A stretch of 10,891 nucleotides of DNA, from the NCBI GenBank assembly GCA_018830845.1, contig JAHJRS010000039.1, positions 1 to 10,891 of the forward strand, written 5' to 3'. Of this stretch, positions 2,429-10,891 are shown one piece after another (the first letter of the stretch is position 1; each line of letters opens with the position of its first letter). A program made the position numbers and the translations under genes. The notes beneath the pieces were generated by a model. That model was not told the DNA's origin and searched no databases. It saw only the letters and a list, made by a program, of their open reading frames with translations. This DNA comes from Nanobdellota archaeon. GTDB taxonomy: Archaea; Nanobdellota; Nanobdellia; Pacearchaeales; GW2011-AR1.

Positions 2429-2830
2429 CTATTGACTTTGCAGCCTTGACAATTTTTCCTGTATTTCCATAAGTTGAGACTCAATATTCCCTCTTGTGAT
2501 GGGCTTTATTTTAAGTTCTTTTTTTTCAACTTCCTCCACTTTTGAAGGGGTTACTTTTTCTTTTAGGATTTCAGGAATATTGGGATGGGGGAATTCCCTT
2601 CTTATTTTGTCAATGTTGAGCTTAACTTCCTTGAGGAGTTTTGCTATTAAGAATTTTTTTCCAGATTCAAGGTTTCTCAACCGCCTGTAATTTGAAATAC
2701 TTCTTGAAATTTTTAGAAGGTTCAATTCTGAAGAAAGAATATCAACTTTTCCCCTTTTAGCTTCAGATTCTTCCAGCCTGATATGGATTGAACTTTCTTT
2801 TCTTTTTTTAGAATTCTTTTTCTTTTTCAT
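2429..2830 (-). CDS. Basic coiled-coil hypothetical protein (133 aa)
   Basis: I do not recognise an assigned function. The N-terminus is very basic (MKKKKNSKKRKESS). It is followed by a predominantly helical, heptad-like stretch (about residues 35-75, ILSSELNLLKISRSISNYRR), then FPHPNIPEILKE and a charged C-terminal helix ending LMEIQEKLSRLQSQ. No signal peptide, membrane span or enzyme motif is visible. The start is set by the upstream gene: TAATG makes the stop of that gene and the ATG of this one share one base, implying translational coupling and a common mRNA. Proteins of this look occur in DPANN genomes as far as I recall, but I cannot confirm this without a search. The two overlapping genes probably act together, perhaps as a coiled-coil complex; that is inference. 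Confidence 0.75.
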   Translation of the reverse strand: MKKKKNSKKRKESSIHIRLEESEAKRGKVDILSSELNLLKISRSISNYRRLRNLESGKKFLIAKLLKEVKLNIDKIRREFPHPNIPEILKEKVTPSKVEEVEKKELKIKPITRGNIESQLMEIQEKLSRLQSQ

Positions 2831-3423
2831 TATATCTTTGAAAAAATGTCTCTATCAATTTTTTCAACCTGAGACTTCATTTCTTGAATCTCTTTTTCCC
2901 AATTAATAAGTTCTTCTTCTTCTTTTTCCTTTATGCTCTTCGTGTGGCTCAGAAGGGTTTCTATCTCTTCAATTTTGTCTTTTGTTTCTTTGAATATTTT
3001 AAGGGATTCTTCAAATTTGTCTATTCTTACAAAAACAGGACCTGTCCGAGAATCTTCCATTCCCATTTCCCTTGTGGGAGAAATATTCCGCTTGGGCATT
3101 TGCGATTCGCGTCGTTCGGGCATTTCATAATTTGGCTTGGGTCTGTTTTTTTCAATTGGTCTTTGTAATGGCTCCGGTCTGGGTATTATTCCATCTTCAA
3201 AGTCATCCATCTCTTCCTCGTCTTCATCCCCCGAAACAGCATTCTTTATTGTTTCCTGTGAAAATCTATCTCCCATTTTGCTTGTAGGAAAACTCGGGAG
3301 TCTTGGAAAACCCTCGTCGGGGTCGTCTTCAATTTCAGGAAAGTGTGTTGGCAAACTTGGCAATTCCGGAAGTTTCGGAACTCCCATCTCTTTTTTTGAA
3401 TCCTTTTTTGAGAATAATCCCAT
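2830..3423 (-). CDS. Proline-rich/acidic N-terminus, coiled-coil C-terminus hypothetical protein (197 aa)
   Basis: No known function. Three regions are visible. Residues 1-60 are rich in Pro/Leu repeats (PKLPELPSLPTHFPEIEDD, FPRLPSFPT) after a short basic start MGLFSKKDSKK. Residues ~60-130 are a low-complexity acidic then Pro/Arg-rich linker (GDEDEEEMDDFEDG). Residues ~130-197 begin GPVFVRIDKFEESLKIFKE and form a long charged helix ending IDRDIFSKI, a likely coiled coil. There is no signal peptide or transmembrane helix. The linker is probably disordered, so the protein looks like a tethered scaffold or adaptor. It is the first gene of a minus-strand unit and overlaps the next gene by one base. 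Its upstream region is AT-rich, with several possible TATA boxes, and a GAGGTTGG sequence 5 nt before the ATG. My recollection that the C-terminal domain is conserved in DPANN archaea is not verifiable here. Confidence 0.8.
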   Translation of the reverse strand: MGLFSKKDSKKEMGVPKLPELPSLPTHFPEIEDDPDEGFPRLPSFPTSKMGDRFSQETIKNAVSGDEDEEEMDDFEDGIIPRPEPLQRPIEKNRPKPNYEMPERRESQMPKRNISPTREMGMEDSRTGPVFVRIDKFEESLKIFKETKDKIEEIETLLSHTKSIKEKEEEELINWEKEIQEMKSQVEKIDRDIFSKI

Positions 3424-3566: not shown

Positions 3567-4382
3567 ATGTTAAATAAATTACTTAATGAGGTTGTTCTTT
3601 CTATTGTAGGCAAGTCTGCGGAGGAAATAGTGGAGCCATTAAACAGCAATAAACATGTTAATGAATTTATTTTAGCAAAAAAATTGGAGATAACTATTAA
3701 TCAAACCAGAAACATTCTCTATAAAATTGCTGATTATGGGTTGGTTTCCTCAATTAGGAAGAAAGACAAAAAGAAAGGGTGGTATACTTACTACTGGAAA
3801 TTTGAAATTTTAAAGTGTCTTGAATATTTGAAAGAGCTCTGGACAAAAGAAAAGGAGAAAATTCAGAGCGAGGTTGAACTAAGAAAGTCAAAGATGTTTT
3901 ATGTTTGTGAATCTTGTGATTTGGAGTATGATGAAGATCAGGCTTTGTTAATGGATTTTACTTGTGATGAGTGTGGTAAAATATTTAGTGTTAAAAACAA
4001 TTCAAAGATGATAAAAGATTATGAGAAAGTTCTTTTAAAAATTGAAGATAAATTAAAGATTGTCGGGAGTGAAATTGAAAAGGAGCATGCAAAACTTGGA
4101 AAAAAGAGGGGAGCCGAGTTAAAAAAAGAAGAAAAGGAAAAGGAAATGAAGAAAGCCGAGAACAGAAGAAAGAGAAAAGCCGAAAAAGAAGCAAAAAAGA
4201 AAACTGAAAAAAAGGTTCAGAAGATTTCTGAGAAAAAATCAAAAAAGACAAAAAAAATTTCCAAGAAAAAACCATCGAAAGGAAAAACAAAATCCAAAAA
4301 AAAGCCTGTTCAAAAGAAAGTTAAGGCCAAAAAAAGTTCTCATAAAAAAGTGGTTAAGAAAAAAACAAAAAGAAAGAAATGA
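3567..4382 (+). CDS. tfe: Transcription factor E (TFE-alpha) with lysine-rich tail
   Basis: Archaeal homologue of the TFIIE alpha subunit, which helps RNA polymerase, TBP and TFB open promoter DNA. Residues 1-90 form the winged-helix domain (FILAKKLEITINQTRNILYK, LVSSIRKKDKKKGWYTYYW). A helical linker (~80-108) follows. A zinc ribbon has ligands C114, C117 and C133, C136 (CESC...CDEC), then a further helix to about residue 175. Typical archaeal TFE ends near there at roughly 170-190 residues. This one continues for about 95 residues of almost pure basic low-complexity sequence: by my count 37 of the last 71 residues are Lys, with Ser/Thr/Pro/Ala spacers as in histone H1-like tails. The tail probably binds nucleic acid (inference). 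The start ATG 3567 fits a TATA box 30 nt upstream. The gene diverges from the coiled-coil pair and ends at an 8-T run. Confidence 0.95.
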   Translation: MLNKLLNEVVLSIVGKSAEEIVEPLNSNKHVNEFILAKKLEITINQTRNILYKIADYGLVSSIRKKDKKKGWYTYYWKFEILKCLEYLKELWTKEKEKIQSEVELRKSKMFYVCESCDLEYDEDQALLMDFTCDECGKIFSVKNNSKMIKDYEKVLLKIEDKLKIVGSEIEKEHAKLGKKRGAELKKEEKEKEMKKAENRRKRKAEKEAKKKTEKKVQKISEKKSKKTKKISKKKPSKGKTKSKKKPVQKKVKAKKSSHKKVVKKKTKRKK

Positions 4383-7198: not shown

Positions 7199-7882
7199 AT
7201 GGCAAAAATCTTTGTAAAAGAAAAGGACAAGGAAAGAGTGGAAAATTATCTGAAGTCTGTTGATTTAGATTACTCTTTAGAAAAAGATTTTATTGAAAAT
7301 CAGAATATGGAAGGGTTTGTTTACGTCCCTTCAATAAACCTTTATGTTGCTAAAGAAAAAAAACTTCATAATAAAAATTGGTTTGAAGCACATAAAAAAC
7401 TTCAAAAAGAAGGGGAAAAAATGCTCACTCTATATGAGTTTGTTGAATTCTTAAAATATGCAAAAAGTAATAATAAAGAAATTTATGATGAAATAACCGA
7501 AGTCAGAAGTCCTTTGAGAGCTGAATGGCTTGACGCTGACTTTAAGGTTAAAAATGGAGTTTTGCATATTAATTATAATCATGTTTTAGATTCAAACGGG
7601 AATTTAATTCCAAACGATTCAGAAGCTCTTGATAAAGAAACTTTAATGAAAGACAAAAACCCCGGAATTTCACTCGAAGATTATTTAGAAAGTAATCACA
7701 CAGGTCAAGGATTGCCAAATAAGAGTGTTAAGTCTGGAGATTTATATTACTGGTTCCCAAGAAGCGACAACAATTCAGTCGCGAGGTTCAATGCCCTCGA
7801 TTATGGGGCTAACCTCAGCTGCAACTGGTATTCGTCTAATCGGTTCGGCAATCTCGGGGTACGCGCCGTTAGGCGCGAGTAA
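7199..7882 (+). CDS. Probable diversity-generating retroelement target protein with C-terminal variable region
   Basis: A 227-residue protein. The N-terminal half (MAKIFVKEKDKERVENYLKS to about 100) is charged, helical and cytosolic-looking, with MLTLYEFVEFLKYAK in its middle. Residues ~105-185 (RAEWLDADFKV, LHINYNHVLDSNGNLIPN, GDLYYWFPRSDNNS) lead into a C-terminal block, SVARFNALDYGANLSC (193-208) and LGVRAVRR (219-226). Framework motifs of this kind separated by freely varying residues are what I recall from DGR-diversified C-type-lectin-fold proteins in DPANN archaea and CPR bacteria. The DNA supports this: positions 7776-7880 are about 57% GC by my count, against about 20% at 7441-7500, with codons (CTC, CGG, GCG, GGG) otherwise rare here. 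A hairpin follows at once. No reverse transcriptase or template repeat is seen in the window. The start at 7199 was chosen from the TATA box; ATG 7160 would place that box inside the gene. The ligand is unknown. Confidence 0.75.
   Translation: MAKIFVKEKDKERVENYLKSVDLDYSLEKDFIENQNMEGFVYVPSINLYVAKEKKLHNKNWFEAHKKLQKEGEKMLTLYEFVEFLKYAKSNNKEIYDEITEVRSPLRAEWLDADFKVKNGVLHINYNHVLDSNGNLIPNDSEALDKETLMKDKNPGISLEDYLESNHTGQGLPNKSVKSGDLYYWFPRSDNNSVARFNALDYGANLSCNWYSSNRFGNLGVRAVRRE
7775..7877 (+). other. Putative DGR variable region (VR)
   Basis: Codons 193-226 of the upstream gene. Framework residues (SVARF, A, L, C, LGVR, VR) are interspersed with positions that would be A-derived in a template: N198, L200-G203, N205, S207, N209-Y211, N214-N218. 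The end is very GC-rich (GTACGCGCC), like the initiation-of-mutagenic-homing end of characterised VRs. The boundaries are estimates, since no template repeat is available for alignment. Confidence 0.55.
7862..7877 (+). repeat. GC-rich 6-bp inverted repeat at VR 3' end
   Basis: CGCGCC, loop GTTA, GGCGCG: a perfect 6-bp stem inside the last codons. It shares 7875-7877 with the next hairpin, so the two stems exclude each other. Confidence 0.5.
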
Positions 7883-7894
7883 GGTGTTACTCGC
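7875..7894 (+). repeat. 8-bp stem, 4-nt loop hairpin spanning the stop codon, DGR-type
   Basis: GCGAGTAA, loop GGTG, TTACTCGC: a perfect 8-bp stem containing the TAA stop. DGRs such as that of Bordetella phage BPP-1 need a hairpin/cruciform of about this size just 3' of the variable region for target recognition. A T5 tract (7897-7901) follows, so it could alternatively act as a terminator. Confidence 0.6.
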
Positions 7895-8001: not shown

Positions 8002-9108
8002 ATGGCCAATGAAATAAAAGAAAATCCAAAAACCGAAGAACTTTTTTTACCTTTTTCAAAAGGGAATCTTGAAGGGGAGCTTGGAAAGGATTTTATGGAT
8101 GTTTTGAAAATGGTTGCCCCCGGGACGAGCCTGAGAGTGGCACTTGATGATTTTTTGAATGCAAAGATGGGCGCTCTTATTGTTGTGGACAATGGAAATC
8201 TTGGGGATATTGTCGAAGGAGGATTCAGAGTTGACACTAAATTTAGCGCACAGAAACTTGTTGAACTTGCAAAAATGGACGGAGCAATAATTCTTTCTAA
8301 AGATGTGAAGGAAATTCTTAACGCAAATACACTTCTTTATCCAAGTATAACAATTCCCACAAAAGAAACCGGGACAAGACACAAAGCTGCAGAAAGAACT
8401 TCAAAACAAACAAAGACAATTGTTATTGCGGTTTCGGAGAGAAAAAATAAAATTTCTTTATACTATGGTGATGCTTCATATCAGCTTCAGAGGAGTTCTG
8501 AAGTTTTAAGGAGGGCTTCCGAAACTCTTCAGATTCTTGAAAAGCAAAGGGATATTTTTGATGAACTTTTATCTAATTTGAATTCTCTTGAATTAAGGCG
8601 CCATGCCACAATTAATGATGTGTGTATTGTTTTGCAAAGGGTTGAAATTATGAAGAGGGTTTCAGAAGTTGTTCAGAGATATTTAATTGAACTTGGACAG
8701 GAAGGAGTGATTGTAAAAATGAGGCTTAAAGAATTAATGAGCGGGCTTTCAAAAGAGGAGGAACTTATTTTAAAAGATTATTTTGGTTCAAACCATTCAT
8801 CTTCCCTTGAAATACTTGAAAGAATGGATTTTGATTTTTTACTTGAGCCAATGAATATTTCAAGGTTGCTTTTTGAAGAGATTCACGACAAAAATATTTC
8901 CCCTAAAGGTATAAGGCTTCTTGGAAGAACGAATCTCCTTGAGAGATATGTTGATTTGCTTATCGGTAACTTTGAAAATCTGTCCGAGATAATTGGTGCA
9001 AGTAATGAGGAGCTTTTAGAAGTTTTGGAAAGTGAAGCAATGCTTTCTTTTTTCAGGGAAGAAATATACAACCTCAAGGAAAAAATTAATCTTGGTAAGG
9101 GGCTTTAA
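8002..9108 (+). CDS. disA: DisA-type diadenylate cyclase (c-di-AMP synthase)
   Basis: Condenses two ATP to c-di-AMP. The 368-residue protein matches the bacterial DisA layout and length (about 360). An N-terminal DAC domain (about 25-155) carries GALIVVDNG, the DGA motif (93-95, MDGAIILSKD) and the ATP-binding block IPTKETGTRHKAAER (118-132). The usual RHR motif reads RHK here. A helical linker follows (about 160-290), then a C-terminal helix-hairpin-helix-like region (SPKGIRLLGRTNLLERYVDL, 300-319). The second hairpin of that region lacks the expected G-x-G (it reads LESEAM), so DNA-junction binding may be weakened. Characterised archaeal enzymes are DacZ, which lacks this linker-HhH tail, so a full DisA in an archaeon suggests bacterial origin (inference). 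GTG 7984 in frame was rejected because it lies within the leaderless promoter spacing. The gene is monocistronic, and a DHH phosphoesterase lies two genes downstream. Confidence 0.92.
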   Translation: MANEIKENPKTEELFLPFSKGNLEGELGKDFMDVLKMVAPGTSLRVALDDFLNAKMGALIVVDNGNLGDIVEGGFRVDTKFSAQKLVELAKMDGAIILSKDVKEILNANTLLYPSITIPTKETGTRHKAAERTSKQTKTIVIAVSERKNKISLYYGDASYQLQRSSEVLRRASETLQILEKQRDIFDELLSNLNSLELRRHATINDVCIVLQRVEIMKRVSEVVQRYLIELGQEGVIVKMRLKELMSGLSKEEELILKDYFGSNHSSSLEILERMDFDFLLEPMNISRLLFEEIHDKNISPKGIRLLGRTNLLERYVDLLIGNFENLSEIIGASNEELLEVLESEAMLSFFREEIYNLKEKINLGKGL

Positions 9109-10016: not shown

Positions 10017-10891
10017 ATGTTAAGAAAAAAAGAAATTGAAGAAATTAGGGAGCATCTTTTAAGGGCCCAAAACCCCCTATTTTATTTTGATAATGATCAG
10101 GACGGGCTTTGTAGTTACCTCCTGTTAAGGAAATTTTCGGGAAAGGGAAATGGGGTTCCTGTTAAAACATCTCCTTTGGGAAAAGATTACGCAGGAAGGA
10201 TAAAAGAGTTTAATCCGGATTATATTTTTATACTGGATCAGCCGGTCATTTCGGATGAATTTTTTGAAGAGGTGAAAGAGAAAAATATTCCTCTTGTTTG
10301 GGTAGATCATCATGAAACCCAAATAGAAAAAATTCCTAAAGAGGTTTTTTACTTTAACCCTCTTTTTAGCGACGGGAAAAATGAACCTGTTACAAAAATC
10401 TGCTATGAAGTCACAAAGAGAAAAGAGGATTTGTGGATTTTGATTGCAGGATGTCTTGCTGACAAATTTTTTCCGGAGGAGTATAAGAATTTTTCAAAAG
10501 TTTACCCTGATTTGACAATTGATTCGAGAGTTCCTTTTAAAATATTTTATGAATCTGAAATTGGAAAAGTTTCAAGAATGATGGGAACAGGATTGAAGGA
10601 TAGAACAAGCATGGTTATGAAAATGATAAGGTTTTTGCTTAATGCAAGGACGCCCTACGAAGTTCTTGAGGAAAAAAAGGAAAACATAGAAATGCACAAG
10701 AGATTCCATGAGATTGATTCAAAATTAAAGGTTCTTTTTGAAAAAGCAAAGAATAGTTTAGGAAAGGGAAAGGTCTTGTTTTTTAGGTATGCAGGGGACA
10801 CAAGCATGAGCGCCGACATTTCAAACAGGCTAAGCTACGAATTTCCTGAAAAGATTGTCGTTGTGGCTTTTTTGAGAGGTGCAAGGGTCAA
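10017..10891 (+). CDS. DHH-family phosphoesterase (RecJ/NrnA-like), 3' truncated by window edge
   Basis: The frame is open from ATG 10017 to the right edge (291 complete codons). The Mn-dependent DHH core is clear: motif I FDNDQDG (D25, D27, D29), motif II FILDQP (D74), motif III VDHHET (D97, H98, H99) and a later Asp in AGCLADKFF. The C-terminal part seen (GKGKVLFFRYAG, SADISNRLS, KIVVVAFLRGAR) looks like the start of a DHHA1 substrate-binding domain, whose glycine-rich GGG/GGH loop would lie outside the window. Members hydrolyse phosphodiester bonds in single-stranded DNA/RNA (RecJ, archaeal GAN), oligonucleotides (NrnA) or cyclic dinucleotides (GdpP, DhhP). The substrate cannot be chosen from the visible part. 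DisA two genes upstream makes a c-di-AMP/pApA role worth testing, but each gene has its own promoter, so there is no operon linking them. Confidence 0.85.
   Translation, partial: MLRKKEIEEIREHLLRAQNPLFYFDNDQDGLCSYLLLRKFSGKGNGVPVKTSPLGKDYAGRIKEFNPDYIFILDQPVISDEFFEEVKEKNIPLVWVDHHETQIEKIPKEVFYFNPLFSDGKNEPVTKICYEVTKRKEDLWILIAGCLADKFFPEEYKNFSKVYPDLTIDSRVPFKIFYESEIGKVSRMMGTGLKDRTSMVMKMIRFLLNARTPYEVLEEKKENIEMHKRFHEIDSKLKVLFEKAKNSLGKGKVLFFRYAGDTSMSADISNRLSYEFPEKIVVVAFLRGARV

What the first reader, a model, noticed from the sequence alone, without database searches (positions are those of the whole stretch)
7199..7894. Probable DGR target gene with no retroelement cassette nearby
The last ~35 codons (SVARFNALDYGANLSC ... 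LGVRAVRR) look like a variable region on a C-type-lectin framework, and the base composition jumps (about 57% GC at 7776-7880 against about 20% at 7441-7500 by hand count). A perfect 8-bp/4-nt hairpin follows immediately, as in known DGRs. No RT, Avd or template repeat is visible in the window, so the gene would be a remote (trans) target of a cassette elsewhere. The protein is cytosolic-looking, unlike many surface-displayed targets.
Basis: partly seen in the sequence, partly recalled or inferred. Interest (0 to 1): 0.88.

Follow-up and report, generated by a model that had tools for sequence, protein, structure and literature searches.

The report
Switchable retroelement rewriting a distant gene
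The gene in this archaeal genome piece is a remote target of a diversity-generating retroelement that lies on another contig, and the retroelement's enzyme gene carries a slippery DNA repeat, found at the same spot in many relatives, that probably switches the whole mutation machine on and off.

Summary
The gene at 7199-7882 is a target of a diversity-generating retroelement (DGR) whose cassette lies elsewhere: contig C3 of the same genome holds a paralogous target, a template repeat (TR) and a reverse transcriptase (RT). Three variable repeats (VRs; window, C3, C65) differ from this TR at 34 places, 32 of them TR adenines (P = 4e-14). DPANN DGRs and RT-less targets are already in print.

The surprise is the RT. 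It is split at a run of ten G just before its GMPLGNLTSQ motif. In the window's family 46 of 99 RT genes examined carry a G/C run or (GA)n tract: 42 at this site, 4 at a second one; in 38 of the 46 the frame breaks at the tract. Of 47 broken RTs, 7 break elsewhere. Downstream pieces remain under purifying selection, and TR/VR pairs look as fresh as those of open RTs. None of 74 viral RTs has such a tract. Best reading: slipped-strand phase variation of a hypermutator. Reversibility, read-level tract variation and RT activity were not testable; the C-type lectin fold stays untested.

The parts
7199..7882 (+). DGR target gene (227 aa), remote from its cassette
   Evidence: paralogues at C65:19-705 (81% aa identity) and C3:1187-1867 (69%)
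7777..7857 (+). variable repeat (VR), 81 nt, matches TR C3:2119-2199
   Evidence: 11 mismatches to TR, 10 at TR adenines, one C>T
7850..7860 (+). IMH-like 3' end of the VR, AATCTCGGGGT; the TR has AATCTCGGAAT (IMH*-like); approximate bounds
   Evidence: alignment; compare the TGGGGT / TGGAAT pair reported for nanoarchaeal DGRs in PMC4372165 (passages)
7862..7877 (.). 6-bp inverted repeat, loop GTTA, inside the gene
   Evidence: identical in C65, degraded in C3
7875..7894 (.). 8-bp inverted repeat, loop GGTG, over the stop codon
   Evidence: sequence; imperfect in C65, not seen in C3

Best explanation
The window gene is a trans target of a DGR in a Pacearchaeota-type DPANN archaeon. The cassette on contig C3 (target 1187-1867, TR 2119-2199, RT in two frames 2231-2782 and 2748-3242) supplies a TR RNA; an error-prone RT copies it with substitutions at adenines, and the cDNA replaces the VR at the 3' end of at least three paralogous target genes, the window's among them. 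The RT gene is a contingency locus: a run of ten G (other species: G8-13, C11 or (GA)n) in the linker just before the SQ motif changes length by slipped-strand mispairing, so that RT is made in some cells and not in others, and bursts of target diversification alternate with phases in which a selected variant is kept. Shown: TR/VR adenine pattern, the tract, its recurrence at one site, broken frames, constraint on both halves. Inferred: DNA-level reversibility, retrohoming in trans, the benefit, and that the halves are inactive when out of frame.
For: TR/VR: 32 of 34 mismatches at A over three VRs, P 4.3e-14; 17 of 26 template A hit. RT: YVDD and GMPLGNLTSQ, PHROG 1423 reverse transcriptase for both halves. 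Tract: the genome's 564,663 bases hold two runs of 9 or more G, one of them in this RT. Family census: 46 of 99 RTs with a tract (29 G, 1 C, 16 GA), 42 at the linker and 4 at a second site; 38 of 46 break at the tract, 6 are open, 2 break elsewhere; both frame offsets occur (23 and 13 of 36 linker breaks). Background: 9 tracts in 432,444 nt of neighbouring DNA against 46 in 100,288 nt of RT. 36 of 47 broken RTs break within 21 of 355 profile positions (P 6e-35 for uniform breaks). 16 disjoint pairs of out-of-frame RTs: downstream pN 0.14-0.34, pS 0.62-0.88; dN/dS 0.09-0.14 in the 6 unsaturated pairs. TR/VR non-A divergence 2.1% beside broken tract RTs, 1.8% beside intact tract-free RTs. On the RT tree tract presence needs 31 changes, at least 8 forced by well-supported branches.
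Against: No reads: tract length variation inside one population was not seen, and one genome per species is held. Only 6 tract-bearing RTs are open against 38 broken at the tract, fewer than the third expected from random lengths (P 0.003), so slippage may not be the only force or assemblies may misjudge lengths. 46 of 99 RTs manage without a tract. Two linker breaks have no called tract (L277, L310). Only one RT was found in the 75%-complete own genome and it is broken; an open RT may sit in the missing part. Tracts also occur in a few open RTs outside the family at other positions (L159, L169; L421, L424). 10 of 37 broken tract RTs showed no TR/VR pair within the stretch searched. The fraction of mismatches at A is partly by construction, because pairs were kept for A bias.
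Confidence: 0.77

Rival explanations
1. Programmed slippage in expression: RNA polymerase or ribosome slips on the G or GA tract, so a fixed small share of full-length RT is always made from the out-of-frame gene. The tract would set a low dose rather than a switch.
For: Most tract RTs are out of frame (38 of 46), both halves stay constrained, TR/VR pairs look recently used; all three fit constant low-level expression.
Against: Both frame offsets occur (23 and 13 of 36), as do open tract genes (6), and three repeat units (G, C, GA) replace each other among close relatives; a programmed site usually keeps one slippery word and one direction (established knowledge).
Confidence: 0.12
2. Plain decay: these DGRs are dead or dying, and the tract is a mutational hot spot where pseudogenes break first.
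For: 33 of 63 genomes have a broken-at-site RT, and in 27 of these no open RT was found. Isolated RT frameshifts with intact TR/VR were reported before (PMC3521204, passages).
Against: Only 7 of 47 broken RTs break outside the two tract sites, and L305 and L283 are the two with a further lesion that I noticed. Purifying selection persists downstream, and TR/VR divergence at non-A sites is 2.1% against 1.8% beside intact RTs.
Confidence: 0.07
3. Assembly or sequencing error: tract lengths are misread in metagenome assemblies and the RTs are in truth intact.
For: All genomes are draft assemblies; long G runs are error-prone.
Against: Errors would not create the tracts, which are rare elsewhere and sit at one site in assemblies with different naming styles (k141, NODE, rifoxy); GA tracts break frames too (14 of 36 linker breaks).
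Confidence: 0.04
4. Two-part RT: the halves are translated separately and assemble.
For: Both halves are conserved; the motif methionine (33 of 34) could serve as a start.
Against: An ATG in the downstream frame within 99 nt is present in 6 of 34, no more than in the other frames (7 and 12); intact single-frame RTs are common (52 of 99 are open).
Confidence: 0.02

Closest known systems
Diversity-generating retroelements of DPANN archaea (nanoarchaeal DUSEL4 DGRs, Paul et al. 2015, PMC4372165; passages, part 1 of 5 of the text)
   Same: RT, TR, VR at the target's 3' end, adenine mutagenesis, orphan cytosolic-looking targets, GGGGT / GGAAT ends, several DGRs per genome, RT-less partial DGRs suspected to be diversified remotely.
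   Different: The parts of that paper that I saw do not mention tracts or split RTs ('frameshift' occurs 0 times in its text). Here one TR is matched with three targets on three contigs and the RT carries a tract.
BPP-1 DGR (Guo et al. 2011, PMC3240598; passages)
   Same: Target site at the 3' end of VR followed by an inverted repeat (8-bp stem, 4-nt loop in BPP-1).
   Different: Here no inverted repeat is shared intact by the three targets; loops are GTTA and GGTG rather than GRNA; no Avd-like family (PF05635) in the genome found.
Bacterial contingency loci with poly-G or dinucleotide tracts (Campylobacter, Neisseria; abstracts in listings; review PMC11868660, passages)
   Same: Simple-sequence tract inside an ORF, frames on and off among relatives, constraint kept downstream.
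   Different: The switched gene is the engine of another hypermutation system, in archaea; the review passage itself calls archaeal phase-variable loci a matter for future work.
DGRs with inactivated RTs (DiGReF, PMC3521204; passages)
   Same: Frameshifted or interrupted RT with intact TR/VR.
   Different: There, single bacterial cases of different lesions; here a recurrent lesion at one repeat tract.

Membership tests
Diversity-generating retroelement | RT of the DGR type with [LIVM]GxxxSQ and YxDD motifs | tested here: met
   GMPLGNLTSQ and YVDD in the downstream half; PHROG 1423 hits for both halves; RVT_1 50.4 bits for the downstream half, 22.9 (below the 29.6 cut-off) for the upstream half. 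That the motif marks DGR RTs is recalled.
Diversity-generating retroelement | TR/VR pair differing at template adenines | tested here: met
   32 of 34 mismatches at A in three VRs.
Diversity-generating retroelement | IMH / IMH* difference at the 3' end of VR and TR | tested here: met
   CTCGGGGTA (window, C65), CTCGGAGTA (C3) against CTCGGAATA in the TR; function not tested.
Diversity-generating retroelement | Inverted repeat after the VR | tested here: inconclusive
   Present in window and C65, degraded in C3.
Diversity-generating retroelement | Target VR on a C-type lectin fold (common, not universal) | tested here: inconclusive
   AlphaFold mean pLDDT 48.3 with 8 sequences; no useful sequence match.
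Diversity-generating retroelement | Accessory gene such as Avd (common, not universal) | tested here: inconclusive
   PF05635 has no match in the 75%-complete genome; other accessory families were not searched.
SSR phase-variable (contingency) gene | Unstable repeat tract inside the ORF | tested here: met
   G10 at C3:2759-2768; 46 of 99 family RTs.
SSR phase-variable (contingency) gene | Relatives found in both open and broken frames at the tract | tested here: met
   6 open, 38 broken at the tract, 2 broken elsewhere. Compared across species, not within one.
SSR phase-variable (contingency) gene | Tract length varies within a population and reverts | not testable with these tools
   No reads; one genome per species.
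SSR phase-variable (contingency) gene | Expression differs with tract length | not testable with these tools
   Needs a reporter or proteomics.

The most novel reading that the evidence does not exclude
A whole lineage of DPANN archaea has put its targeted hypermutation engine under a random genetic switch: slipped-strand phase variation of the DGR reverse transcriptase, gained and lost repeatedly with different repeat units at one linker, lets a fraction of cells diversify several dispersed target genes while the rest keep their proven variants.
Probability: 0.7. Interest if true: 0.9.

Novelty: new variant of a known kind. Interest (0 to 1): 0.82.

Why it matters
DGRs make huge diversity in chosen genes, but how cells keep a good variant from being overwritten is little understood. 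A repeat tract that shuts the RT off and lets it return would be a simple answer, would join two hypermutation systems (contingency locus and DGR) in series, and would be a clear case of phase variation in uncultivated archaea. It also bears on surveys: RTs in two frames are easily discarded as pseudogenes, and in this family 47 of 99 examined RTs are in more than one piece. It can be tested with existing metagenome reads.

Tried and rejected
Homologues by peptide pattern with the three-target alignment: none in genome contigs or viral contigs; whole-genome search found them instead. Rfam on the window: nothing at gathering scores. PDB by sequence: weak hits only. AlphaFold: a low-confidence model, so no fold search was run. 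Five targets in the genome: rejected. The end of C73 overlaps the start of C65 by exactly 127 nt and C9 (reversed) shares 123 nt with it, so C73 and C65 are probably neighbours; three complete targets are seen and a fourth is implied by the second flank (C9). Independent start for the RT's downstream half: not supported. First dN/dS run: 12 of its 14 printed pairs used L283, whose downstream piece is short and which has a further piece elsewhere; replaced by disjoint pairs without L283. Other runs of G in relatives, looked at in 13 loci: several lie in frame inside open genes, others not; no count was made.

Rows dropped: one search started from 105 family chains; 6 that do not span profile 150-230 were left out of the 99 (one of them, L375, has a G9 and a linker break). 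Not all RT rows were fetched and its list was cut, so the census is a large part, not all, of the family's RTs; 63 of the 69 genomes with a match are in it. Two of the 7 'elsewhere' cases (L317, L334) keep one frame and may be gaps or insertions; L373 begins at 194 and resumes at 250.

Full report
What was checked first. The window is contig C30 of a 564,663-base draft genome in 97 contigs, about 75% complete. A genome of the same genus, G010, holds an 18,236-base contig that matches in length and in RT coordinates the record JAGVXF010000018.1, 'Candidatus Pacearchaeota archaeon RIFOXYB1_FULL_34_12', so I call the host a Pacearchaeota-type DPANN archaeon.

The cassette. A DNA search of the own genome found two complete paralogues (C65, 88% DNA identity; C3, 77%), gene 5' ends at the ends of C9 and C73, and a short match at C3:2119-2199 beside the C3 paralogue. 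Contig C3 (L007) holds in order a target (1187-1867), the TR (2119-2199), the RT (2231-2782 and, in another frame, 2748-3242) and a long SMC-like gene; an RNase-HII-like gene lies upstream (these two names are recognised by eye). No other RVT_1 match was found in the genome.

The mutation pattern. Over 81 nt, with 26 adenines in the TR, the VRs differ from the TR at 14 (C3), 9 (C65) and 11 (window) places; 13, 9 and 10 of these are at TR adenines, 32 of 34 in all (P 4.3e-14). The two exceptions are a C>G in C3 and a C>T in the window. The adenines changed to G 21 times, T 10 times and C once. VRs also differ from each other mainly at these sites (10 of 11, 13 of 15, 12 of 13). The similarity starts abruptly at AGTCGCG and ends at CTCGG, with GGGGT in two targets, GGAGT in C3 and GGAAT in the TR, the same kind of pair that Paul et al. 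2015 give for nanoarchaeal DGRs (PMC4372165, passages). That paper also describes RT-less partial DGRs that may be diversified remotely (part 1 of 5 read). Roux et al. 2021 state that their survey could not detect remote targets and that archaeal clade-5 targets usually lack recognisable transmembrane or other domains (PMC8144416, passages).

Relatives. The target profile matches 19 of 92 related genomes. An unsupervised search for near-repeats with adenine-biased differences in the fetched loci recovered TR/VR pairs in 9 of the 19 genomes, own included (the search kept pairs with at least 75% of differences at one base, so the bias itself is by construction). Target C-termini vary strongly on a shared frame ending in LGVRA or similar.

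The split RT. The own RT changes frame at a run of ten G (C3:2759-2768). In same-genus genomes the same place holds G9 (G001, broken), a (GA)13 tract (G004, broken), G11 (G006, broken) and (GA)6 (G010, open). I therefore searched 181 genomes of the family with a profile of seven open RTs: 69 had matches, many in two pieces meeting at profile 192-198. I fetched most of these stretches and took a census: 99 RT genes from 63 genomes span the linker. Tract means at least 8 G or C, or at least five units of a dinucleotide. 46 RTs have one tract each (29 G, 1 C, 16 GA): 42 at the linker, 20 to 99 nt before the GMPLG motif (two of these were placed by their junction sequence), and 4 at a second site about 155 nt after it. 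38 of the 46 break at the tract, 6 are open, 2 break elsewhere. Of 53 without a tract, 46 are intact, 2 break at the linker and 5 elsewhere. Both frame offsets occur: 23 and 13 of 36.

Controls. In 432,444 nt of other DNA from the fetched family loci there are 9 tracts by the same definition, one of which (L330) proved to be the cut end of an RT; the 99 RTs make 100,288 nt with 46. In the own genome 1 of 2 runs of 9 or more G is in the RT. In 28 other genomes, chosen mostly for a broken RT, I counted by hand 45 such runs, 19 of them in RTs. Of 74 distinct viral DGR-type RTs, from the best 80 of a capped list, none has a tract and none is split; a best-match list favours unsplit genes, so the tract count is the fairer control. 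In the same order outside the family, 9 RTs have no called tract; one (L365) is broken at the linker beside a G6 run, another (L372) elsewhere. In 20 loci from other orders of the class, four picked because they looked split or partial and 16 because they looked intact, one is broken at a linker G12 (L409) and three open RTs have G tracts (L420, L421, L424). The trait is thus common in this family and not confined to it.

Is the broken RT dead? Three results say not. First, breaks outside the two sites are few (7 of 47; two of these keep one frame). Secondly, in 16 disjoint pairs of out-of-frame RTs the downstream piece has pN 0.14-0.34 and pS 0.62-0.88; six pairs are unsaturated, with dN/dS 0.09-0.14. 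Thirdly, TR/VR pairs were found beside 27 of 37 broken tract RTs and 30 of 39 intact tract-free ones; differences at non-adenine sites are 2.1% and 1.8% (both sets kept only adenine-biased pairs; one cross-comparison with 15 non-A differences is included in the first). A tree of 106 upstream pieces (quick, LG+G4; 45 of 103 inner branches weak) needs 31 changes between tract and none, at least 8 forced by well-supported branches, and tract presence is hardly clustered (50 of 500 shuffles as low). This suggests rapid gain and loss.

Mechanism. The linker before the SQ motif varies in length among open RTs, so a stretch of glycines or Arg-Glu there is probably tolerated when in frame, which makes it a natural place for a switch. 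Slipped-strand mispairing at such tracts is established in bacteria (recalled; abstracts), and replicative archaeal polymerases slip in vitro (PMC4134008, abstract start). My reading: the tract turns the RT on in a minority of cells; these rewrite the VRs of all targets sharing the TR; reversion to off fixes the outcome. That more are broken than random lengths predict (38 of 44 against two thirds, P 0.003) would fit selection for mostly-off. In 27 of the 33 genomes with a broken-at-site RT no open RT was found; drafts are incomplete, so this is weak evidence. Slippage during expression is the main rival and is not excluded.

Literature. Searches for DGR with phase variation, frameshift, slipped-strand, contingency loci, homopolymer and regulation showed listings with title and start of abstract, capped at 20 of up to 172; I saw no report of tract-controlled DGR RTs there. 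Passages were read in PMC3521204 (isolated RT lesions; contingency loci named only as another mechanism), PMC10053308, PMC2831843 and PMC11868660. Paul et al. 2017, the main survey of DPANN DGRs, is not held, so it could contain such an observation.

The target protein. It is probably cytosolic by eye (no signal or membrane stretch seen).

Noticed in passing
window 8002-9105 (+) and 10017-10889 (+): A DisA-type diadenylate cyclase (DAC and DisA-linker domains) and a gene with a weak DHH match (25.7 bits, cut-off 28.1) in a DPANN archaeon; whether they form a c-di-AMP pair was not examined.
   Followed up: partly
L068 (G000:C9) 1-131, L069 (G000:C73) end, L049 and L050 (G010) ends: Contigs of two genomes end inside the 5' part of target genes; in the own genome the ends share 123-127 nt with C65. 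Assembly breaks at these repeated genes, so target numbers are underestimated.
   Followed up: partly
G000:C66:4013-4021 (L353): The only other run of 9 G in the genome, between a glycosyltransferase-like and a methyltransferase-like gene (names by eye): a possible second variable locus.
   Followed up: no
L376 (G177:C1): A 54-nt GA tract in a DGR RT, the longest dinucleotide tract in the census.
   Followed up: no
L159, L169, L421, L424: Open DGR RTs outside the family with GA or G tracts at other positions of the gene.
   Followed up: no
L293, L294, L336, L339: Second tract site about 155 nt after the GMPLG motif, in four family RTs, all broken there.
   Followed up: partly
L007 2078-2089 and 2149-2160: GGCTAACCTCAA occurs just before the TR and again inside it; perhaps a remnant of an older template.
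   Followed up: no
window 3567-4379 (+): TFIIE-alpha-type N-terminal domain followed by a long lysine-rich tail.
   Followed up: no
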